Shown one piece after another: positions 3,579-48,918 of a stretch of 54,168 bases of DNA (its first letter is position 1; each line of letters begins with the position of its first letter). Location: IMG/VR virus record IMGVR_UViG_3300042197_001558, positions 1 to 54,168 of that record, one strand, 5' to 3'. The notes below the pieces were generated by a model. That model searched no databases. It worked only from the letters and a program-made list of their open reading frames with translations, and was not told the origin of the DNA. The DNA is from a virus. The translations under genes were made by a program, and so were the position numbers.

Positions 3579-3758
3579 ATGAAACAAAAAACATTTGAAA
3601 ACATGGTAACGCATGAACAATACATTTGTCCGAATACCCGAGATATTCGTGTGATTGATAATGTGGAGTATCTACCAGTTCAAAAGGTTAATTCTCCTCG
3701 TATTGTTTTGATGCGTCGTGATGCGCTTAAGCCTGTGGTTCTTGACAAGAAGGTATAA
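3579..3758 (+). CDS. hypothetical protein, 59 aa
   Basis: ATG 3579 lies eight bases after CTGGAG. An upstream in-frame extension would run through the tRNA and is rejected. The protein is mixed charged (MKQKTFENM start) with a DNVEYLPVQ segment that looks like a short beta-rich fold. It is probably co-transcribed with the tRNA and the following SpeD-like gene, which begins four bases later. Function is not recognised. Confidence 0.75.
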   Translation: MKQKTFENMVTHEQYICPNTRDIRVIDNVEYLPVQKVNSPRIVLMRRDALKPVVLDKKV

Positions 3759-3762
3759 ATCT

Positions 3763-4119
3763 ATGAATTTTTGGGGTTATCATCTAATGCTTGATTGTAG
3801 TGGCTGCAATCAAAATGTATCCGATCGTGAATCAATTTATAATTTCAATTCTGAATTGATTGAACGCATTGATATGATCGCCAGTGGCGAACCTATCATC
3901 AAGCATCTATTGCCTGGCGACCCTAAACAGGGTTACAGTTTGATGCAACTAATTACAACTAGTAATATCTGTGCTCACTTCATGGATCACGGCGGTACAG
4001 CATATATTGATATCTTTTCCTGTAAAGAATTTGATATTGAAGCAGCCAAAGAAATTGTATCAAAGTATTTTGCTCCAGCAAAAATGCGAACTATGTATGT
4101 AATTCGTCACGCTGATTGA
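3763..4119 (+). CDS. SpeD/AdoMetDC-type pyruvoyl decarboxylase homologue
   Basis: 118 aa, the size of the small single-gene bacterial/archaeal class. Opens FWGYHLMLD, as in AdoMet decarboxylase. The family self-cleaves to make a pyruvoyl cofactor from an internal Ser. Here Ser67 (TTSNICAH), His72 at +5 and Cys87 at +20 keep the spacing of the Thermotoga enzyme's Ser63/His68/Cys83. The residue before the Ser is Thr rather than the usual Glu. SpeD makes decarboxylated AdoMet for spermidine; some homologues are known to decarboxylate arginine or ornithine, so substrate is uncertain. Start ATG 3763 is preceded by AAGGT. Confidence 0.85.
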   Translation: MNFWGYHLMLDCSGCNQNVSDRESIYNFNSELIERIDMIASGEPIIKHLLPGDPKQGYSLMQLITTSNICAHFMDHGGTAYIDIFSCKEFDIEAAKEIVSKYFAPAKMRTMYVIRHAD

Positions 4120-4126
4120 GATCAAA

Positions 4127-4900
4127 ATGTCTTTTGATAAAGTTTTAATTTTCGGCAAAGGAAAAGTAGGAACTGCTACTCAAGAAATACTTAATATTGA
4201 CGTAGATTTTGTAGATAAACCAAAAAACATTGATGTATCTGATATATCAATTTACGATCTAGCAATTATATGTGTGCCATCGTTAACTCGTGGTCATAAT
4301 GATTACTTAGAAGTAAATCAATGTTTAGACAGATTAAAAGATAATTTTGATGGGTTGATTGCGTTACGCTCAACCGTATCTCCGAACTATTTACGAGAGA
4401 TCAGTGAGAAGTATAGTAATTTAAATATCATTTACTTCCCTGAGTTCTTAAAACAAAGAAGTTATGAAACTAACACTACACCTTGGATTACAGTTTTAGG
4501 TGGGAATTTAGAGTTAACAGAGCCATTTTCAAAATGGCTGCTTGACCGTAATTATGGCTCAAAAGAACTAGTACATTTAGTTTCATTAGAAGAAAGTGCT
4601 TTGATAAAACTGTTTCAAAATGCTGGGTTAGCACTTAAAGTAACATACGCTAATGTTATGTTTGAAGCATGTAAAATGTTTGAAGCAAATTTTGAAAAGG
4701 TAAAGTTTGGAGTAGGTTCAGACAAAAGAATTGGCATGGATCATTTAAATGTGCCAGGAGAAGATGGGTTTGGATTCGGTGGACATTGTTTGCCGAAAGA
4801 CCTGAACTGTTTATCTCATGTGTATGATCATGCTGATTTTTGGTCAACCGTTATCGCAGCAAATCAATCTTTTCTTAAGAAAAACAACCAAAATACTTGA
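4127..4900 (+). CDS. truncated UDP-glucose/GDP-mannose dehydrogenase family protein
   Basis: 257 aa against ~390-450 for the family. An N-terminal Rossmann motif (GKGKVG, residues ~10-15), then ICVPS, a LRSTVSP segment and the catalytic loop GFGFGGHCLPKD (Cys ~221), which oxidises the C6 hydroxyl of a nucleotide sugar in two NAD-dependent steps. The usual C-terminal substrate-binding domain is absent. It starts seven bases after the SpeD-like gene. Its TGA stop forms part of the next promoter's -35 box. It may be a minimal active form or work with a host partner. Confidence 0.85.
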   Translation: MSFDKVLIFGKGKVGTATQEILNIDVDFVDKPKNIDVSDISIYDLAIICVPSLTRGHNDYLEVNQCLDRLKDNFDGLIALRSTVSPNYLREISEKYSNLNIIYFPEFLKQRSYETNTTPWITVLGGNLELTEPFSKWLLDRNYGSKELVHLVSLEESALIKLFQNAGLALKVTYANVMFEACKMFEANFEKVKFGVGSDKRIGMDHLNVPGEDGFGFGGHCLPKDLNCLSHVYDHADFWSTVIAANQSFLKKNNQNT

Positions 4901-4925
4901 ATTATAATAAGATGTCTAATATAAT
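4897..4925 (+). promoter_or_regulatory. strong promoter for the structured RNA and Ro-like gene
   Basis: TTGAAT at 4897-4902, exactly 17 bp, consensus TATAAT at 4920-4925. Transcription should start near 4932, just before the folded RNA. The TGA of the upstream gene is inside the -35 box. Confidence 0.8.
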
Positions 4926-4931
4926 AGACGC

Positions 4932-5065
4932 ATAGACAAATAAGGCTAGGCACAGCAACCAATAATAATGGAGGACTGGGGTAACCCTGTCGAGGTGAGT
5001 TTCGATTTCTCACTTGAATCAAAAAGTAGAAAACTAGCCTGTTAAAGTTAGTGAATGCTAACAGC
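4932..5065 (+). ncRNA. candidate tRNA-like / Y-RNA-like structured RNA
   Basis: A 7-bp closing helix (AGGCTAG 4943-4949 with CTAGCCT 5034-5040) encloses a weak CCA/TGG hairpin (4959-4971), a hairpin GACTGGG-GTAA-CCCTGTC with a GNRA loop (4974-4991), and a 7-bp arm (4993-4999/5009-5015) whose loop contains TTCGATT, the T-loop pattern of tRNAs. A further GTTAG/CTAAC hairpin follows at 5047-5062. It lies between a strong promoter and a Ro/TROVE-like gene; bacterial Y RNAs with tRNA-like modules sit beside Ro genes. No terminator separates it from the gene, so it could instead be a structured 5' leader. Folding was done by eye. Confidence 0.5.
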
Positions 5066-5121
5066 AACCAAAAAAATCAAACCGTAACTTTGAAAAAACG
5101 CATTCAGAAAGGAAATCAAAA

Positions 5122-6537
5122 ATGAACACATTCGTTGAAGCAATCAAGGAACAAGAAGTTCGTACCGCTAACGGTATGAAGGCCCGTAAGACTACTGCTA
5201 ACGCTGTAGTAGACTTTTTCTACAATGTAGGCGCAAGTCGTGGGAAGAACATCATCCCACAATTCGTAGCCGCACTGACCGAAGATCGTGAACTAGCACT
5301 TCGTGTGGCACTATGGAGTCGTGATGTCCGTAGTGGCGCAGGTGAACGCCAACTATTTCGTGATATGTTGGTGTATCTGGAAAAGCATGATCCTGCAAGT
5401 GCAGAGCGCCTATTGGCTAAGATCCCAGAACTGGGCCGTTTTGATGACCTATTCGTCTTCAAGACTCCAGATTTGAAGTCAAAGGCTTACACTCTGCTGG
5501 GTAATCATCTGCGTGAACGAAATGGTCTCGCAGCAAAGTGGACTCCACGTAAGGGACCAGTTGCTAATGAACTCCGTGCTTTCTTCGGTATGAGCCCAAA
5601 GCAATATCGTAAGAGTTTGGTAGAAATGACCAAGGTAGTAGAAAGCCAGATGTGTGCTGGTGATTGGGATAACATCAATTTCAGTCATGTGCCAAGTCAG
5701 GCTAGCCGTATTTACAAGAAGGCTTTTAATCGTCATACCACTAAGTTCGCAGAATATGTGGCTAAGTTGGTAAGCGGTGATAAGTCTGTAAAGGTAAACG
5801 CTGGTGCTATCTTTCCGCATGATGTCTTGAAGGGTCAAATCAGTGCTTATGGTCCACAGAAGTTGAATAAGACTGAACTAGATCATCTAGTGGCACAATG
5901 GGATGCGTTGCCTAACTATGTTGGTGATGCTAACATTCTACCACTGGTAGATGTAAGTGGATCGATGCAATGCCCAGCAGGAAAGAATACCAGTGTGACC
6001 TGTCTGGATATCAGTGTTAGTTTGGGTCTATATCTTGCTGATAAGAACCGTGGTGCATTTCATGGTACTTTCTTGACATTTAGTGGTCGTCCTGAACTTG
6101 TTACTCTCAAGGGTAACATTGTTCAGAAGATCGCACAAATGACTGGTAGCAGTTGGGGTATGAACACCAACCTACATGCTGCTATGGAAAAGATTCTTAG
6201 TGTTGCGGTCAAGCAGAATGTACCACAGGGTGATATGCCAAAGATGCTTTTGATCTTGTCCGATATGCAATTTGATCATTGTGTACAGCATGATGATAGT
6301 GCTATGGAGATGATTGAACGCAAGTTTAAGTCAGCGGGGTACGATATGCCTCAAGTAGTATTTTGGAATCTTAACAGTACAGACAATGTACCAGTTAAGA
6401 GTGACAAGAGTGGAGCAGCATTGGTAAGTGGTTATAGTCCAAGTATTATGACCAGTCTATTGAGTGCTGATGCCAGTCAGTTTACTCCACGTGGCATCAT
6501 GTTGAAGACCATCAACAATCCTCGATACGATTGCTAA
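5122..6537 (+). CDS. Ro60/TROVE-like vWA protein (DUF2828 type)
   Basis: 471 aa. The N-terminal half is helical-repeat-like, with the signature of Ro/DUF2828 proteins (ALWSRDVRSGAGERQLFRD, then LGRFDDLFVF). The C-terminal half is a von Willebrand A fold with an intact MIDAS start, DVSGSM (residues ~277-282), plus a later LILSDMQFD. Ro proteins are ring-shaped RNA chaperones that bind misfolded RNAs and Y RNAs and, in bacteria, tether exonuclease. The RNA at 4932-5065 is a candidate partner. SD AAAGG precedes ATG 5122 and a strong terminator follows, so RNA and protein form one unit. Family assignment is firm at the fold level, function inferred. Confidence 0.85.
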   Translation: MNTFVEAIKEQEVRTANGMKARKTTANAVVDFFYNVGASRGKNIIPQFVAALTEDRELALRVALWSRDVRSGAGERQLFRDMLVYLEKHDPASAERLLAKIPELGRFDDLFVFKTPDLKSKAYTLLGNHLRERNGLAAKWTPRKGPVANELRAFFGMSPKQYRKSLVEMTKVVESQMCAGDWDNINFSHVPSQASRIYKKAFNRHTTKFAEYVAKLVSGDKSVKVNAGAIFPHDVLKGQISAYGPQKLNKTELDHLVAQWDALPNYVGDANILPLVDVSGSMQCPAGKNTSVTCLDISVSLGLYLADKNRGAFHGTFLTFSGRPELVTLKGNIVQKIAQMTGSSWGMNTNLHAAMEKILSVAVKQNVPQGDMPKMLLILSDMQFDHCVQHDDSAMEMIERKFKSAGYDMPQVVFWNLNSTDNVPVKSDKSGAALVSGYSPSIMTSLLSADASQFTPRGIMLKTINNPRYDC

Positions 6538-6540
6538 TTA

Positions 6541-6564
6541 TAGGGGCGCAAGCCCCTATTTTTG
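6541..6564 (+). terminator. rho-independent terminator
   Basis: TAGGGGC-GCAA-GCCCCTA stem-loop with a GNRA loop and five T residues, directly after the Ro-like gene. Confidence 0.9.
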
Positions 6565-6979: not shown

Positions 6980-7525
6980 ATGTGGATACAAAATGTAAGT
7001 AAGTATGATATCGCGGCTGGCAATTATAAGAATCCAGGACCAAACAGTATGTTGATTCAAATTCTGGATAAAGATGAAGAGTTTCCAGTGCCGCCGCCTG
7101 AATTTTCTGAGTTTCATCGTTTTGAATTTCTTGACGAAGAAGGCTCAAACTATTATGGGTTAAATTATGATATGCCATATCCCACAAATGGCGATTTAAT
7201 TACAGCACAGCAGGCAAAAGAAATCGCAGATCTTTTGATGAAAGCACGTAGCAAAAGTATGAATGTGGTGGTTCATTGCCATGCTGGAATTTTTCGTAGT
7301 GGTGCCGTGGCTGAAGTTGGCGTTTTGGTGGGATTTGAAGACGTAGGTGCTTTTAGATGTCCTAACAGATTGGTCAAACATCGCATCATGGATGCTATGA
7401 ATATGAAGTATAATCCTAAAGAGCCTATTAGTGTGAACGGTAAGCCTGCTAAGGATACAGCGTCAAAGCATCAAATCACGATTGCTGGATATCGTTCACA
7501 ATTGGCGAAACTTGATCAAAAATAA
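6980..7525 (+). CDS. tyrosine/dual-specificity phosphatase-like protein
   Basis: 181 aa. The signature loop HCHAGIFRSG (residues ~99-108) is a full Cys-x5-Arg-Ser P-loop of the PTP/DSP superfamily, preceded by the strand VVVH. An N-terminal segment with FEFLDEEG and a NYDMPYPTNG stretch fits the beta-sheet that precedes it. Such enzymes remove phosphate from Tyr/Ser/Thr or from RNA 5' ends. With the nearby 5'-kinase and Ro-like protein, an RNA or protein target are both possible. No strong SD (AGAGAATAAAAAA precedes), so translation may be coupled to the upstream gene. Confidence 0.8.
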   Translation: MWIQNVSKYDIAAGNYKNPGPNSMLIQILDKDEEFPVPPPEFSEFHRFEFLDEEGSNYYGLNYDMPYPTNGDLITAQQAKEIADLLMKARSKSMNVVVHCHAGIFRSGAVAEVGVLVGFEDVGAFRCPNRLVKHRIMDAMNMKYNPKEPISVNGKPAKDTASKHQITIAGYRSQLAKLDQK

Positions 7526-7547
7526 GATTAACAATATAATACAGCCA

Positions 7548-8238: not shown

Positions 8239-8700
8239 GTGGCAAAATGTTTTATGTTAATCGGCGTGCCAGGATCTGGCAAAAGTACTTGGATCAGTCA
8301 ACAAGACTGGGCTAAGGATTGTGCTATCATCAGTACCGATGATCATGTTGAACGTTTTGCCGCCGAACGTGGCAGTACGTATAGTGAAGTCTTCAAGGAG
8401 TATATGCCTCGTGCTGTTGAGATGATGGCACAAGATGTTATTGCTGCCCGAAAGGCGGACAAGGACATTATCTGGGATCAGACCTCTACCACACGTGTCA
8501 GTCGTGCTCGTAAGTTCAGGATGTTGCCAAACTACCGGCATATTGCTGTTGTATTTCCTACACCTGCGCCTAAAGAATTGATGCGTAGATTGGCTAATCG
8601 TCCTGGAAAAGATATTCCCCAGCATGTGGTCAATGGTATGATCAACAACTTTGAGATGCCTACTGAAGAAGAAGGCTTTGATGAAATCTGGCATGTGTAA
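8239..8700 (+). CDS. 5'-polynucleotide-kinase-like P-loop ATPase
   Basis: 153 aa. Walker A GVPGSGKST at residues ~9-17, then STDDHVE and a WDQTSTT segment, the layout of the kinase domain of phage Pnkp (AAA_33 family). T4 PnkP phosphorylates RNA 5'-OH ends during tRNA repair; the 3'-phosphatase domain of T4 PnkP is absent here. The GTG start at 8239 is chosen because AAAGGA lies seven bases before it. A terminator follows. With the RNA ligase (23451) and cREC protein (25983) it may form a repair set, although other small-molecule kinases share this fold. Confidence 0.8.
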   Translation: MAKCFMLIGVPGSGKSTWISQQDWAKDCAIISTDDHVERFAAERGSTYSEVFKEYMPRAVEMMAQDVIAARKADKDIIWDQTSTTRVSRARKFRMLPNYRHIAVVFPTPAPKELMRRLANRPGKDIPQHVVNGMINNFEMPTEEEGFDEIWHV

Positions 8701-8909: not shown

Positions 8910-9869
8910 ATGAGTTTAAAACAAGACATCCTAAAATATAGTAGACAGGAGAACTTACACTCCTTAAGTGGCTGGTTTGATTCCAGCCTAAGTGATCTAA
9001 TCGAAGACGGCACATACAGTGATCAGAACGGATTAGATGAAACTGGCCGTAAATTGATAAGTGGGTTGATCGCATACACTAATCGTCATAAAATAAGTAC
9101 GGCCGTGATTGGAATGAGCGGTGGTGTAGATAGTGCGTTAACTGCGGCATTGTTCAAATCTGCTGGCTGGCGTGTTATTGGTGTGACTATGCCCATACAC
9201 CAGCGCGAAGAGGAAACTGAACGTGGCATCGTGGCATGTAAAGCACTAGGAATTCAACATAAGCATATTGATTTAACAAAATCATATGATGCGTTATTGA
9301 AATCTGTTGCCGCACATGATCCAGAAATTAACGACAAAGAAAACTCTATACGAAGAGGTAATTTGCGTGTTAGATTGAGGATGATGACCTTATACAATCA
9401 GGCTAGTTTACATCGTGGATTAGTGGGTAGTACTGATAATTTCAGTGAATTAGCAACTGGATTTTGGACCCTACATGGTGATGTGGGTGATGTTGCGCCT
9501 ATTCAAAGTTTGCTTAAGAGTTGGGAAGTTCCTAAGTTAGCGGAAATGTATGGTGTTCCTGAAGAAACTGTGTTTGCTACTCCGACAGACGGATTAGGAA
9601 TCAGTAATGGCGACGAAGATCAATTTGGCTTTAGTTATCTTGAACTTGATATTGTATTGATGAAGTTATGTTCTTTGTTAAGTATTGGTATGGAATATCA
9701 ATCAGCGATGAATGTATTAAATGTATCTAGTTCTGATGTTGAAAAAGTTAATAAGATACTTTCTAGAATTTCTAGTAGTAAATTCAAGCGTCAAAATCCA
9801 TATAATCTAGAACATCCTATTCAACGATATAGATATACAGGTTTAAAACAATTAGACACAAATATATGA
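8910..9869 (+). CDS. nadE: NAD synthetase, ammonia-dependent
   Basis: 319 aa. ATP pyrophosphatase loop SGGVDSAL at residues ~70-77, then GNLRVRLRMMTLYNQA and GSTDNFSELATGFWTLHGD, all NadE hallmarks. It amidates nicotinic acid adenine dinucleotide to NAD using ATP and ammonia; no glutaminase (nitrilase) domain is present. No clear SD; the ATG lies ~45 bases after the promoter. It overlaps the next gene by ATGA. It is separate from the NMNAT and NAMPT genes at 45-49 kb, which feed NAD without needing NadE, so it probably serves a second route. Confidence 0.92.
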   Translation: MSLKQDILKYSRQENLHSLSGWFDSSLSDLIEDGTYSDQNGLDETGRKLISGLIAYTNRHKISTAVIGMSGGVDSALTAALFKSAGWRVIGVTMPIHQREEETERGIVACKALGIQHKHIDLTKSYDALLKSVAAHDPEINDKENSIRRGNLRVRLRMMTLYNQASLHRGLVGSTDNFSELATGFWTLHGDVGDVAPIQSLLKSWEVPKLAEMYGVPEETVFATPTDGLGISNGDEDQFGFSYLELDIVLMKLCSLLSIGMEYQSAMNVLNVSSSDVEKVNKILSRISSSKFKRQNPYNLEHPIQRYRYTGLKQLDTNI

Positions 9870-23422: not shown

Positions 23423-23450
23423 GTATTTCTATTAGATAGTGAGGTACAAA

Positions 23451-24479
23451 ATGTCCCGTAAGATGGCTACAATTAGGAAGATTGATGAAATTCGTCCTAT
23501 TGAGGGCGCTGATGCTATTGAGGCTGCTGTAGTAGGCGGCTGGGCAGTTGTGATCAAGAAGGGTGAATTCAAGGTCGGTGATCTTGCCGTTTACCTGGAA
23601 ATTGATTCCTGGGTTCCCAATGAACTTGCCCCATTCTTGAGCAAGGGTAATGAACCTCGGGAATTCAATGGTATTCGGGGTGAACGCCTACGTACTGTGA
23701 AGTTGAGGGGAACTACCTCACAAGGATTGTTGCTGCCTATTGAAACAGCATTTCCTGGTTCTGAACGCCGTTTCTGGTGGAGTCAGGTGGATGTTGATGT
23801 TAGCGAACGACTTGGCATTCAAAAGTGGGAAGCACCTATCCCTGCCCAACTTGCGGGTGATGTTGAAGGTCCGTTTCCCACGGTGATTCCCCGTACTGAC
23901 CAAGAAAGAATCCAAAACCTCACCGAACAACTTAAGGAGTGGCAAGGTAATACTGACTTCACCTGGGAAGTTACCGAGAAGTTGGACGGTAGTTCTATGA
24001 CGGTGTTCGTCAATGGTGATAGTGAAGGTGTTTGTAGCCGTAATTGGAACTTGAAGGAAACTGAAGGCAATACTCTGTGGCGGGTTGCTCGTCGTAATGA
24101 TCTGCTGGTCAAGATCCGCAAAACTAATCGTAATCTTGCTCTACAGGGTGAGTTGATTGGTGAGGGCATTCAGGGCAATGCTTACAAGGTAACTGGGCAG
24201 GATTTCTTCGTGTTTGATATCTACGATATTGATCGCGGTGACTACATGACTCCCTTTGAGCGTAGGGTATTTTGCGATACTCACGGCATCAAGCATGTTC
24301 CTGTGCTGGCTAAGGAAATGGTGATTCAAGAGTGGGTCACTGGATTGCTGACTATGGCAGATGGTCAAAGTGTCCTAAACCCTAAGACAGGGCGTGAAGG
24401 TCTGGTGTTCAAGAGCAATGTTTTTGACGGTCCAAGTTTCAAGTGCATATCAAATTCATGGCTTTTGCATGAGAAGTAA
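23451..24479 (+). CDS. RNA ligase, DraRnl (Rnl5) type
   Basis: 342 aa. An N-terminal OB-like domain (residues 1-100, with VGDLAVYLEIDSWVP and LRTVKLRGTTSQGLLLP) precedes the nucleotidyltransferase domain, whose motif I is EKLDGSS (active Lys ~180). This OB-first order is that of Deinococcus DraRnl, which seals nicked duplexes with a 3'-OH RNA end. ATG 23451 is preferred with GAGG six bases upstream; a GTG at 23439 would extend it by four residues. Its end overlaps the GIY-YIG gene by 24 bases. With the 5' kinase and cREC protein it suggests RNA repair. Confidence 0.9.
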   Translation: MSRKMATIRKIDEIRPIEGADAIEAAVVGGWAVVIKKGEFKVGDLAVYLEIDSWVPNELAPFLSKGNEPREFNGIRGERLRTVKLRGTTSQGLLLPIETAFPGSERRFWWSQVDVDVSERLGIQKWEAPIPAQLAGDVEGPFPTVIPRTDQERIQNLTEQLKEWQGNTDFTWEVTEKLDGSSMTVFVNGDSEGVCSRNWNLKETEGNTLWRVARRNDLLVKIRKTNRNLALQGELIGEGIQGNAYKVTGQDFFVFDIYDIDRGDYMTPFERRVFCDTHGIKHVPVLAKEMVIQEWVTGLLTMADGQSVLNPKTGREGLVFKSNVFDGPSFKCISNSWLLHEK

Positions 24480-45530: not shown

Positions 45531-46562
45531 ATGTCTAAGAAGTATGATACACTTGTATTCGTGGCGCGACTACAACCCATACATAACGCCCATGTAACAA
45601 TTATCAAGATGGCCATGGCAATGGCTCGTCAGGTAATTGTTATTGTGGGCAGTGCTCATCAAGCCCGTACCTTCAAGAATCCATTCACCAGCCATGAGCG
45701 TGAATGTATGATCATTGATGCCCTGCGTGATACCGAAGAAGAATACGATTGTAGCCTGCGTATTGAACATAATATTGATACCATCTACAACGATCAGGCC
45801 TGGATGATCCGTGTCCAACAACTGGTAGGCAAACATACACTGGGCATGACCAAGATTGGACTGATTGGACATGACAAGGACGAAAGCAGTTTCTATCTCA
45901 AGTGGTTCCCGACTTGGGCCCGTGAAGAAGTAGAACTGCTGGAGCCACTGAATGCTACAAACATTCGTGATCTATATTTCCGGCGTGATGTCAATCTAAA
46001 GTTTTTGGAGCGTGTTGTACCAGCAAGCACACTCAACACACTGGCTAACTTCATGACCACGCCAGCATTTGAACAAATTGTTCGTGAGCGTGAATTCATC
46101 GCACAGTACCGTAAGCAATATGAAAGCCTACCATATCCGCCCATCTTTGTTACAGCGGATGCCGTGGTAATCCAAAATGGTCATGTGCTAATGATCAAGC
46201 GTCGTAGTGAACCTGGTCGTGGGTTGTGGGCATTGCCTGGTGGATTTGTCAATGCTCGTAGTGACCGTAGCGTGGAGGATGCTGCTATTCGTGAACTGCG
46301 TGAAGAAACTGGTATCAAGGTTCCTGTGCCCGTGTTGCGTGGTAGCATTGTGCGTAGTAAGGTGTTTGATGCGGTGGAACGAAGTGCCCGTGGTCGTACA
46401 ATTACACATGCCTATTTCATTGTGTTGACAGGTGAAGAATTGCCTAAGGTCAAGGGTGCCGATGATGCTGAAAAGGCTCGTTGGGTTCCTATTGCCGAAG
46501 TCAAGAGTGATGAATGCTTTGAGGATCATTGGGAAATTATTCAACATTTTGTAGGAGCTTGA
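45531..46562 (+). CDS. nadM: bifunctional NMN adenylyltransferase / Nudix hydrolase
   Basis: 343 aa. Residues ~1-180 are NMNAT: ARLQPIHNAH, SAHQARTFKNPFTSHERECMI and NATNIRDLYF, making NAD from NMN and ATP. Residues ~200-340 are Nudix (ADP-ribose pyrophosphatase in relatives): GGFVNARSDRSVEDAAIRELREETG holds the catalytic REL-x-EE but has two extra residues and an Arg where the box's first Glu is expected. ATG 45531 is three bases after the preceding gene's stop. With NAMPT at 47548 it completes nicotinamide-to-NAD salvage. Confidence 0.92.
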   Translation: MSKKYDTLVFVARLQPIHNAHVTIIKMAMAMARQVIVIVGSAHQARTFKNPFTSHERECMIIDALRDTEEEYDCSLRIEHNIDTIYNDQAWMIRVQQLVGKHTLGMTKIGLIGHDKDESSFYLKWFPTWAREEVELLEPLNATNIRDLYFRRDVNLKFLERVVPASTLNTLANFMTTPAFEQIVREREFIAQYRKQYESLPYPPIFVTADAVVIQNGHVLMIKRRSEPGRGLWALPGGFVNARSDRSVEDAAIRELREETGIKVPVPVLRGSIVRSKVFDAVERSARGRTITHAYFIVLTGEELPKVKGADDAEKARWVPIAEVKSDECFEDHWEIIQHFVGA

Positions 46563-47547: not shown

Positions 47548-48918
47548 ATGAGTATTAGTAAGTCAATTTTGTTTAATGTAGATAGTTACAAAGTATCAAT
47601 GCACTGTCAAATGCCACCAGGTACTACTGGTGTATACAGTTACATTGAAAGCCGTGGTGGTGAATATGATCGCACTGTATTCTTTGGGCTTCAAGCGTTC
47701 ATTAAAGAATATCTAACCGTGCCCATCACACAAGATGAAATCAATCTTGCGGATGAAATTCTTACAGCGCATGGAGAGCCATTCAACCGAGCAGGTTGGC
47801 AACACATTCTGGATCAACATGGTGGTTATCTCCCAGTTGTTATTCGTGCTGTTCCTGAGGGTACGGTAGTCGGTACTAAGAATGTATTGGCAACCGTTGA
47901 GAACACTGATCCAGCAGTGCCCTGGCTAACCACCTGGTTGGAAACTGCCCTGCTCCGTGCTGTTTGGTATCCTACTACGGTAGCAACTCGTAGCTGGCAT
48001 ATTCGTCAAACTATTCTCAAGTATTTGGAGGAAACTGGTGACCCTTCTGGCATTGACTTCAAGTTGCATGACTTCGGAGCCCGCGGTGTTTCTAGTTTGG
48101 AAAGCGCGGGCATTGGCGGAGCCGCTCACCTTGTCAACTTTATGGGCACGGATACAATTTCTGGTATCCTTTATGCTCGTGAGTACTATAACGCTGGCAT
48201 TGCTGGCTTTAGTATTCCTGCCGCAGAACACTCAACCATCACCAGTTGGGGCCGTGACGGAGAAGTAGATGCTTATAGAAACATGCTCACTCAATTTGCT
48301 CGCCCCGGTTCTATCCTCGCTGTCGTTAGTGATAGTTACGATATCTACAACGCTGCCGGAAAACTCTGGGGAGAAGAACTTCGCCAACAAGTCATTGACA
48401 GTGGTGCTACTGTTGTTATTCGCCCTGATAGTGGCGATCCTGTGGAAGTCAACCGTCGGTTGATCCAAATCCTTGGTGAAAAGTTCGGCTATACTGTTAA
48501 CGCCAAGGGTTACAAGGTTCTTAAGTATGTCCGTATCATTCAAGGTGACGGTGTGAACGAGACCAGTATTCTAGCCATTCTTGAAATGCTTAAGGATGGT
48601 GGTTGGAGTGTTGACAACATGGCATTTGGTATGGGTGCTGAGTTGGGTCAAAAGGTAAATCGTGATACGCTAAAGTTTGCCATGAAGGCATCGGCGGTAT
48701 GTATCAACGGTGAATGGGTGCCTATCAGTAAGGACCCTATAACTGACCCAGGCAAGCGTAGCAAGACTGGTCGTGTTACACTATATCGTGGTCATGATGG
48801 CAGTTATCACAGTGGTGTGGAAGATTGGCCCCAGAGTGCCCTTGAAACGGTATATGAAAACGGTCGTTTGATCCGTGACATGACCTTTGAACAAGTTCGC
48901 AAGAACGCTCGTGGTTAA
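47548..48918 (+). CDS. nadV: nicotinamide phosphoribosyltransferase
   Basis: 456 aa, full-length NAMPT. Start NVDSYKVSMHCQMPPGT, then FGLQAFIKEYL, FKLHDFGARGVSSLESAGIGG, the phosphorylated-His motif AAEHSTITSWG (~228) and VIRPDSGDP (~290). It makes NMN from nicotinamide and PRPP. With the NMNAT at 45531 this is the two-gene nicotinamide route known as NARP2 in phages that rebuild NAD after defence systems destroy it. Own promoter, structured leader and terminator. Confidence 0.95.
   Translation: MSISKSILFNVDSYKVSMHCQMPPGTTGVYSYIESRGGEYDRTVFFGLQAFIKEYLTVPITQDEINLADEILTAHGEPFNRAGWQHILDQHGGYLPVVIRAVPEGTVVGTKNVLATVENTDPAVPWLTTWLETALLRAVWYPTTVATRSWHIRQTILKYLEETGDPSGIDFKLHDFGARGVSSLESAGIGGAAHLVNFMGTDTISGILYAREYYNAGIAGFSIPAAEHSTITSWGRDGEVDAYRNMLTQFARPGSILAVVSDSYDIYNAAGKLWGEELRQQVIDSGATVVIRPDSGDPVEVNRRLIQILGEKFGYTVNAKGYKVLKYVRIIQGDGVNETSILAILEMLKDGGWSVDNMAFGMGAELGQKVNRDTLKFAMKASAVCINGEWVPISKDPITDPGKRSKTGRVTLYRGHDGSYHSGVEDWPQSALETVYENGRLIRDMTFEQVRKNARG

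What the first reader, a model, noticed from the sequence alone, without database searches (positions are those of the whole stretch)
4897..6564. A tRNA-like structured RNA sits in front of a Ro-like protein in a phage
A strong promoter (17-bp spacer, TATAAT) drives a region that folds by eye into a closed multi-branch RNA with a T-arm whose loop has TTCGATT, followed by a Ro/TROVE-like vWA gene and a terminator. Bacterial Y RNAs with tRNA-like modules are known next to Ro genes; a DUF2828-type protein with its own candidate RNA on a phage genome would be new to me. Other proteins nearby handle RNA ends.
Basis: partly seen in the sequence, partly recalled or inferred. Interest (0 to 1): 0.82.

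Follow-up and report, generated by a model that had tools for sequence, protein, structure and literature searches.

The report
Ro-like gene led by tRNA-intron RNA
In front of a phage gene for a Ro60-like RNA-binding protein sit two copies of a small RNA element that in many other phages and gut bacteria is a ~40-base intron inside tRNA genes, usually next to the same protein gene, which points to an undescribed tRNA-splicing system linked to the Ro family.

Summary
The structured RNA and the Ro-like gene are real; the tRNA T-arm is not. Window 4943-5105 holds two tandem copies of one module: stem strand, 2 nt, ACAGCAA, insert, complementary strand, then TG/AG, the second copy ending at the Shine-Dalgarno. 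In 75 related loci 193 of 195 ACAGCAA sites carry the full stem (shuffles: 17), with 15+ covarying stem sequences. Elsewhere the same element, circularly permuted, is a 38-53-nt insertion in the anticodon arm of phage and bacterial tRNAs. Cutting it out restores a perfect anticodon arm in 23/31 and 21/32 genes (shuffles <1). Permuted tRNAs flanked by the element also occur. The protein (DUF2828/DUF7788) has a Ro60 fold and is linked to the element: 31/31 intron-bearing bacterial assemblies encode it (22/200 in one family), usually just downstream of the intron tRNAs; 16/19 intron-bearing viral contigs versus 0-1/23 controls. RNA ligase genes (RtcB, Rnl2-like) often adjoin it. Best reading: a Ro-like protein that recognises and helps splice these mini-introns and autoregulates through a copy in its own leader. 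Splicing itself is inferred, not shown. Phage tRNA introns were reported once as 'enigmatic'.

The parts
4897..4925 (+). sigma-70-like promoter TTGAAT-17-TATAAT
   Evidence: 10 of 12 matches; as many promoter-like matches in shuffles, so supported by position only
4943..4949 (+). module 1, stem 5' strand AGGCTAG
   Evidence: pairs with 5034-5040; covaries in relatives
4952..4958 (+). module 1, conserved motif ACAGCAA
4974..5015 (+). module 1 insert: hairpins GACTGGGGTAACCCTGTC (4974-4991) and GAGGTGAGTTTCGATTTCTCACTT (4992-5015, the supposed T-arm)
   Evidence: helices conserved with double changes, loop sequence not conserved
5034..5040 (+). module 1, stem 3' strand CTAGCCT, followed by G
5053..5058 (+). 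module 2, stem 5' strand GAATGC
   Evidence: 21 double-change cells in relatives, 0 of 500 shuffles
5061..5067 (+). module 2, conserved motif ACAGCAA
5077..5093 (+). module 2 insert: hairpin TCAAA-CCGTAAC-TTTGA (5 bp, 7-nt loop, shaped like an anticodon arm)
   Evidence: sequence; equivalent hairpins in relatives
5100..5105 (+). module 2, stem 3' strand GCATTC, followed by AG
5106..5113 (+). Shine-Dalgarno AGAAAGGA directly after module 2
   Evidence: sequence
5122..6537 (+). 471-aa Ro-like protein (DUF2828 + DUF7788 vWA; PHROG 850 'RNA-binding protein')
6540..6559 (+). intrinsic terminator
8239..8700 (+). AAA_33 / polynucleotide-kinase-like protein, possible RNA-end enzyme
   Evidence: link to the element not shown
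23439..24479 (+). ATP-dependent RNA ligase, DRB0094 type (TIGR02306), candidate exon ligase
   Evidence: role inferred

Best explanation
The leader of this Ro-like gene consists of two copies of a small RNA element (5-8-bp stem, GNNA-type turn or its opened ends, ACAGCAA). In its linear form the element is a 38-53-nt intron in the anticodon arm of tRNAs of phages and bacteria. In its permuted form, as in this window, the two intron halves flank an insert, so the same reaction would yield a circular RNA; relatives carry permuted tRNAs in this form. The DUF2828/DUF7788 protein, a Ro60-fold HEAT-ring plus vWA protein, most likely binds the stem and ACAGCAA. It would hold the exons for cleavage and sealing by an RNA ligase (phage Rnl2/DRB0094-type, or RtcB). 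The copy abutting the Shine-Dalgarno would let the protein repress its own translation. Shown by computation: element, covariation, Ro fold, genetic linkage, restored tRNAs after removal. Inferred: that the intron is removed, that the protein binds it, the enzyme that cuts, ligase identity, autoregulation, circular products.
For: Element: 193/195 ACAGCAA sites upstream of the gene have a full 6-bp stem followed by TG/AG/CG, null 16.8, max 28; module-2 stem covariation 0/500. tRNA introns: 35 viral and 35 cellular contigs match a tRNA-CAGCAA-tRNA pattern. Linear hairpin: all 7 pairs doubly changed; score with the T-stem 0.884 vs 0.247, 0/500. Removal restores a 5-bp anticodon stem with U33 and R37 in 23/31 (null 0.56, max 4) and 21/32 (null 0.40, max 3). 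Permuted tRNAs: 14/25 perfect arms on circularisation (null 0.48, max 3) and 24/25 flanking stems (null 8.6, max 16). Protein link: 31/31 intron-bearing cellular assemblies vs 22/200 in one family, Fisher 1.7e-24; 16/19 viral contigs >80 kb vs 0-1/23 controls, P 6e-9 to 9e-8. Intron tRNAs lie within 1 kb upstream, same strand, of the gene in 25/29 cellular loci. Ro fold: six best PDB hits are TROVE/Ro60/Rsr, E 1e-7 to 3e-6. Ligases: RtcB adjoins the gene in 4 cellular loci; Rnl2-like ligase adjoins it in seven phage records and phage Munch; ligase in this window. Leader copies beside the SD also in distant phages L146, L157, L170, L183, L167, L192.
Against: No RNA data; cleavage and ligation not observed. 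No cutting enzyme identified, and Ro proteins are not known nucleases. Contig G052 has a clear intron tRNA but no DUF2828 or TROVE, and three intron-bearing contigs (L097, L109, L112) lack it, possibly as fragments. Reverse association is weak: only 8 of 44 distant DUF2828 contigs give an intron-model hit of 34 bits or more, and most distant genes have no ACAGCAA leader (4 of 76 do). No ligase family is universal. The inserts in this window are not tRNAs, and the window has no intron tRNA. Many loci are related, so counts overstate independence.
Confidence: 0.62

Rival explanations
1. Y-RNA reading: the modules are Ro-binding stems carrying effector domains (tRNA-like, anticodon-arm-like or larger), as in YrlA, and are never spliced. 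Intron-bearing tRNAs are tRNA mimics or decoys, for example for anticodon nucleases, with a Ro-binding hairpin fixed in the anticodon arm.
For: Ro fold. The permuted tRNA modules have the YrlA layout, a basal stem bearing D, T and acceptor arms (YrlA described in PMC8394870). YrlA lies in rsr-yrlBA-rtcBA operons with RtcB (PMC7790460), and RtcB adjoins DUF2828 here.
Against: Unspliced decoys need no perfect 5-bp stem, U33, R37 and sense anticodons split at 28/29-29/30, yet 23/31 and 21/32 genes have them. Genes with the cut at different positions also argue for removal.
Confidence: 0.2
2. RNA-only splicing: the ~40-nt intron is itself a tiny ribozyme and the Ro-like protein is merely a chaperone or linked passenger.
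For: Very strong sequence and structure conservation of a small core; no consistent cutting enzyme or ligase; one contig with an intron but no Ro-like gene.
Against: No known splicing ribozyme is this small; tight linkage to one protein family and frequent ligase neighbours suggest protein chemistry.
Confidence: 0.08
3. Ordinary cis-regulation: the leader is a riboswitch or attenuator answering a metabolite, with no relation to tRNA introns.
For: Module 2 abuts the Shine-Dalgarno; the phage encodes NAD and polyamine enzymes.
Against: The same element interrupts tRNA genes away from start codons and occurs up to four times per leader with different inserts.
Confidence: 0.05
4. Chance fold in an AT-rich leader.
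For: Single-sequence folding is only mildly better than shuffles (z -2.27).
Against: Covariation and motif statistics.
Confidence: 0.01

Closest known systems
Ro60/Rsr-Y RNA particles (YrlA, RYPER, rsr-yrlBA-rtcBA RNA-repair operon)
   Same: HEAT-ring plus vWA fold; RNA partner with a basal stem and, in some relatives, a D/T/acceptor-arm tRNA-like domain hung from that stem; RtcB next door in some loci
   Different: Different sequence family (DUF2828/DUF7788, no TROVE hit); element is an intron in tRNA genes; sequence motif ACAGCAA; copies in the gene's own leader
tRNA introns of Lak megaphages (PMC6784885)
   Same: Small introns in phage tRNAs, described as enigmatic
Archaeal/eukaryotic protein-spliced tRNA introns and permuted tRNA genes (PMC4090602, PMC3400036)
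   Same: Short tRNA introns; permuted genes with 3' half before 5' half; RtcB as ligase in archaea and animals
   Different: Position mostly 28/29-29/30 rather than one base 3' of the anticodon; conserved hairpin plus ACAGCAA; occurs in phages and bacteria; Ro-like protein instead of a known splicing endonuclease
Group I introns in bacterial tRNAs (PMC3984707)
   Same: Interrupt the tRNA anticodon region
   Different: 38-53 nt, far too short; no group I core and no Rfam match

Membership tests
Ro60/TROVE protein | HEAT-repeat ring fused to a vWA domain (fold) | tested here: met
   AlphaFold pLDDT 86.6; top six PDB matches are TROVE/Ro60/Rsr
Ro60/TROVE protein | sequence match to TROVE (PF05731) | tested here: not met
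   no TROVE hit in the protein or window
Ro60/TROVE protein | vWA with MIDAS motif DxSxS | tested here: met
   DVSGSM in the window protein; D, S, S and M invariant in 58 homologues, G nearly so
Y RNA | stem of paired 5' and 3' ends bound by Ro | tested here: inconclusive
   paired stem present and covarying; protein binding not testable here
Y RNA (YrlA type) | tRNA-like domain with D and T arms in this window | tested here: not met
   no tRNA or T-arm at 4932-5065; present in relatives L076, L006, L192
Y RNA | match to an Rfam family | tested here: not met
   searches give tRNA only
tRNA intron removed by protein | removal restores a canonical tRNA | tested here: met
   with shuffled controls (for the linear introns, not for the window's own modules)
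tRNA intron removed by protein | spliced product in vivo | not testable with these tools
   no RNA data
tRNA intron removed by protein | bulge-helix-bulge motif | not tested
   not scanned for formally
Group I intron | group I core, about 200 nt or more | tested here: not met
   introns are 38-53 nt; no Rfam group I match in 20 loci
Permuted tRNA gene | 3' half precedes 5' half, acceptor strands joined by a short loop | tested here: met
   25 distinct cases with CAGCAA in relatives and other phages; none in the window itself

The most novel reading that the evidence does not exclude
A new class of ~40-nt tRNA introns in phages and bacteria is spliced by a Ro60-fold protein with an RNA ligase; permuted copies make circular tRNAs and other circular RNAs; and Ro-Y RNA particles derive from, or share ancestry with, this tRNA-splicing machinery.
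Probability: 0.35. Interest if true: 0.97.

Novelty: categorically new. Interest (0 to 1): 0.9.

Why it matters
Ro60, a long-studied human autoantigen, has no agreed ancestral function. A Ro-fold protein genetically tied to small tRNA introns and RNA ligases would offer one and make it testable in cultivable phages such as KVP40 and Serratia phage BF. It would add a new way of interrupting tRNA genes in bacteria besides group I introns, explain the 'pseudo-tRNAs' of KVP40 and perhaps the enigmatic introns of Lak megaphages, and show permuted tRNA genes in phages. It also means current annotation misses working phage tRNAs.

Tried and rejected
T-arm or tRNA in the window: rejected, the loop is not conserved and no tRNA is found. 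Self-cleaving ribozyme or riboswitch of a known kind: no Rfam family besides tRNA. A pseudoknot CTGTTA/TAACAG between modules, considered from the sequence: strong in some loci, not general (e.g. L003), left open. RtcB as the universal phage ligase: rejected, 1/19 intron contigs vs 2/23 controls; Rnl1 about equal; Rnl2-like moderately enriched, 12/19 vs 7/23. Exact pattern CGCATTCTGTAAAGAATG in viral contigs: no hit. Control contig G048 first seemed to hold an intron and a weak DUF2828: the 'intron' is an ordinary tRNA with an upstream hairpin and the protein is a TROVE protein. Four of the 35 cellular pattern hits (L317, L320, L327, L336) were left out of the protein search as doubtful; L317 has DUF2828 and RtcB, the other three do not within the locus held. 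My splice test picks the best excision, so it was judged only against shuffles treated the same way. A paper search for DUF2828 with phage found nothing; no paper on permuted tRNAs in phages was found, but only open-licence papers were searchable.

Full report
WHAT IS IN THE WINDOW. The window is a 54,168-base viral contig. ORF 5122-6537 encodes 471 aa matching DUF7788 (3e-49) and DUF2828 (1e-24) with a vWA core and PHROG 850, 'RNA-binding protein'. Upstream, a promoter-like TTGAAT-17-TATAAT lies at 4897-4925 and a terminator at 6540-6559. The leader folds only somewhat better than shuffles (z -2.27), and neither ARAGORN nor Rfam finds anything there. The supposed T-arm (4992-5015) has a 9-nt loop that varies in relatives.

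THE MODULE. Reading the upstream DNA of 75 close relatives showed one repeated unit: a stem strand, two bases, ACAGCAA, an insert, the complementary strand, then TG or AG. The window has two: AGGCTAG/CTAGCCT (4943-5040) and GAATGC/GCATTC (5053-5105), the latter directly followed by the Shine-Dalgarno. Relatives have one to four in tandem upstream of the gene, in regions rich in tRNA genes. Of 195 ACAGCAA sites, 193 have a complete 6-bp stem followed by TG, AG or CG; shuffled downstream DNA gives 16.8 on average, at most 28. Stem sequences change together (GAATGT/ACATTC, GGATCG/CGATCC, GGTTAG/CTAACC, GTTTAG/CTAAAC and others); on a formal count 21 cells show double changes, reached by none of 500 shuffles. 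Larger inserts are themselves structured, with 14 of 35 predicted pairs doubly changed in one type and 10 of 21 in the type of the window. No Rfam family other than tRNA matches 20 such loci.

THE SAME ELEMENT AS A tRNA INTRON. In Synechococcus phage BUCT-ZZ01, Citrobacter phage Ci1 and Vibrio phage KVP40, tRNA genes carry inserts with the same parts in rotated order: A-rich start, stem strand, a turn such as CU-GAUA-AG, complementary strand, (A)CAGCAA or a close variant. KVP40's annotated 'tRNA-Pseudo' genes are of this kind. A pattern search (D-arm, CAGCAA, T-arm) found 35 viral and 35 cellular contigs. Without selecting for it, a hairpin scoring 5 or more ends just before CAGCAA in 18 of 30 distinct viral cases, against 4.1 in shuffles. 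On 31 aligned introns all seven hairpin pairs show double changes; the covariation score (hairpin plus T-stem) is 0.884 against 0.247, 0 of 500 shuffles.

REMOVAL RESTORES tRNAs. For each gene I asked whether one excision leaves a 5-bp anticodon stem, a 7-nt loop with U33 and a purine at 37. That holds for 23 of 31 genes, mostly with the cut after position 28 or 29 and introns of 38-53 nt; shuffling the region gives 0.56 on average, at most 4. In the independent cellular set it holds for 21 of 32, against 0.40 and at most 3. Anticodons are mostly ordinary (Lys, Thr, Ile, Asp, Asn, Gln). This is hard to explain unless the insert is removed.

PERMUTED tRNAs. In relatives of the window (L006, L076, L047) and in Serratia phage BF (L100), a phage with TGA recoding (L219) and others, the element flanks a tRNA whose 3' half precedes its 5' half, the acceptor strands joined by a 3-12-nt loop. 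There are 25 distinct cases with CAGCAA; joining the outer ends gives a perfect anticodon arm in 14 (shuffles 0.48, at most 3), and 24 have a flanking stem scoring 5 or more, often 7-9 (shuffles 8.6, at most 16). If the same reaction acts on these, the product is a circle. The window's array has this permuted layout with other inserts. Module 2 and its relatives carry small hairpins, in several cases with loops like anticodon loops (CTGCAAA, CTGTCAA).

THE PROTEIN IS RO-LIKE AND LINKED TO THE ELEMENT. An AlphaFold model from 58 homologues (pLDDT 86.6, pTM 0.86) matches TROVE, Ro60 and Rsr as its six best PDB hits, E 1e-7 to 3e-6, TM 0.48-0.63 by query length, 11-16% identity. By sequence it is not TROVE. 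Of 19 intron-bearing viral contigs above 80 kb, 16 encode the family, against one very weak match (a TROVE protein) among 23 contigs with an ordinary tRNA found by an equivalent pattern. All 31 cellular assemblies searched with an intron encode it, against 22 of 200 genomes of one family (Fisher 1.7e-24). In 25 of 29 cellular loci that hold the gene the intron tRNAs lie within 1 kb upstream on the same strand; at least one such locus lies among chromosomal genes (aroB, lspA, a pseudouridine synthase; L349). RtcB adjoins the gene in four cellular loci, in three orders and with divergent sequences, and an Rnl2-like ligase adjoins it in seven phage records and phage Munch. The window has a DRB0094-type ligase 17 kb away.

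MECHANISM. Most likely the Ro-like protein binds the stem and ACAGCAA, positions the exons, and a nuclease not yet identified and an RNA ligase complete splicing. The leader copy beside the Shine-Dalgarno suggests autoregulation; it recurs in distant phages (L146, L157, L170, L183) and, with permuted tRNA(-like) inserts, in L167 and L192. Binding, cutting, sealing, repression and circular products are inference.

WHAT SPEAKS AGAINST. One contig (G052) has a clear intron tRNA but no Ro-like gene; three others lack it, perhaps as fragments. Among distant DUF2828 contigs only 8 of 44 give a strong linear-intron hit, so the family may have other roles or the model misses forms such as permuted ones. 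No ligase is universal. Relatedness among loci inflates counts. A Y-RNA reading without splicing remains possible, since YrlA has the same layout of basal stem and D/T/acceptor arms (PMC8394870).

PRIOR KNOWLEDGE. Phage tRNA introns were reported from Lak phages as new and enigmatic (PMC6784885). TROVE proteins were noted in a few jumbo phages, with the tRNA-like partner known from cellular organisms (PMC7824862). I found no description of this intron class, its protein link, or permuted tRNAs in phages, within open-licence papers only.

Noticed in passing
L123:3233-3479 and 5030-5145 (KVP40): Annotated 'tRNA-Pseudo' genes of KVP40 are intron-bearing tRNAs of the CAGCAA class.
   Followed up: yes
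L076 (-699 from the gene), L006 (-487), L047, L100, L192, L205, L207, L219: Permuted tRNA genes in phages, flanked by the element; L100 is the IMG/VR record of 357,154 bases, the length of Serratia phage BF.
   Followed up: partly
L010 and L012, about -552 to -428 upstream of the gene: A two-module leader sits before a different small ORF (MNARIKELAEQ...), while the Ro-like gene has its own minimal 40-nt module; the leader may also control another gene.
   Followed up: no
L035, L037, L046, L075 and others, -300 to -60: A further module type with a ~230-nt, apparently highly structured, unassigned RNA insert just before the Ro-like gene; function unknown.
   Followed up: no
L366 near 7457-7543 (G052:C1:77457-77543): A whole, unpermuted tRNA lies inside a module (AAGACACC-TACAGCA ... 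GGTGTCTT-G), a third arrangement.
   Followed up: no
L328, L335, L317, L343: RtcB ligase genes next to DUF2828 and intron tRNAs in bacterial assemblies.
   Followed up: partly
L349: Intron tRNAs plus DUF2828 lie among chromosomal genes (aroB, lspA, pseudouridine synthase), so the cassette is not only phage-borne.
   Followed up: partly
window 8910-9869, 45531-46562, 47548-48918: NAD synthase, NMN adenylyltransferase/Nudix and nicotinate/nicotinamide phosphoribosyltransferase: a phage NAD pathway.
   Followed up: partly
window 3718-4119: S-adenosylmethionine decarboxylase on the phage contig.
   Followed up: no
L219: DUF2828 gene with 14 in-frame TGA codons, a recoded phage that also has permuted tRNAs.
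   Followed up: no
L367:2865-4598: A 577-aa TROVE-type Ro protein on a 207-kb viral contig without DUF2828.
   Followed up: no
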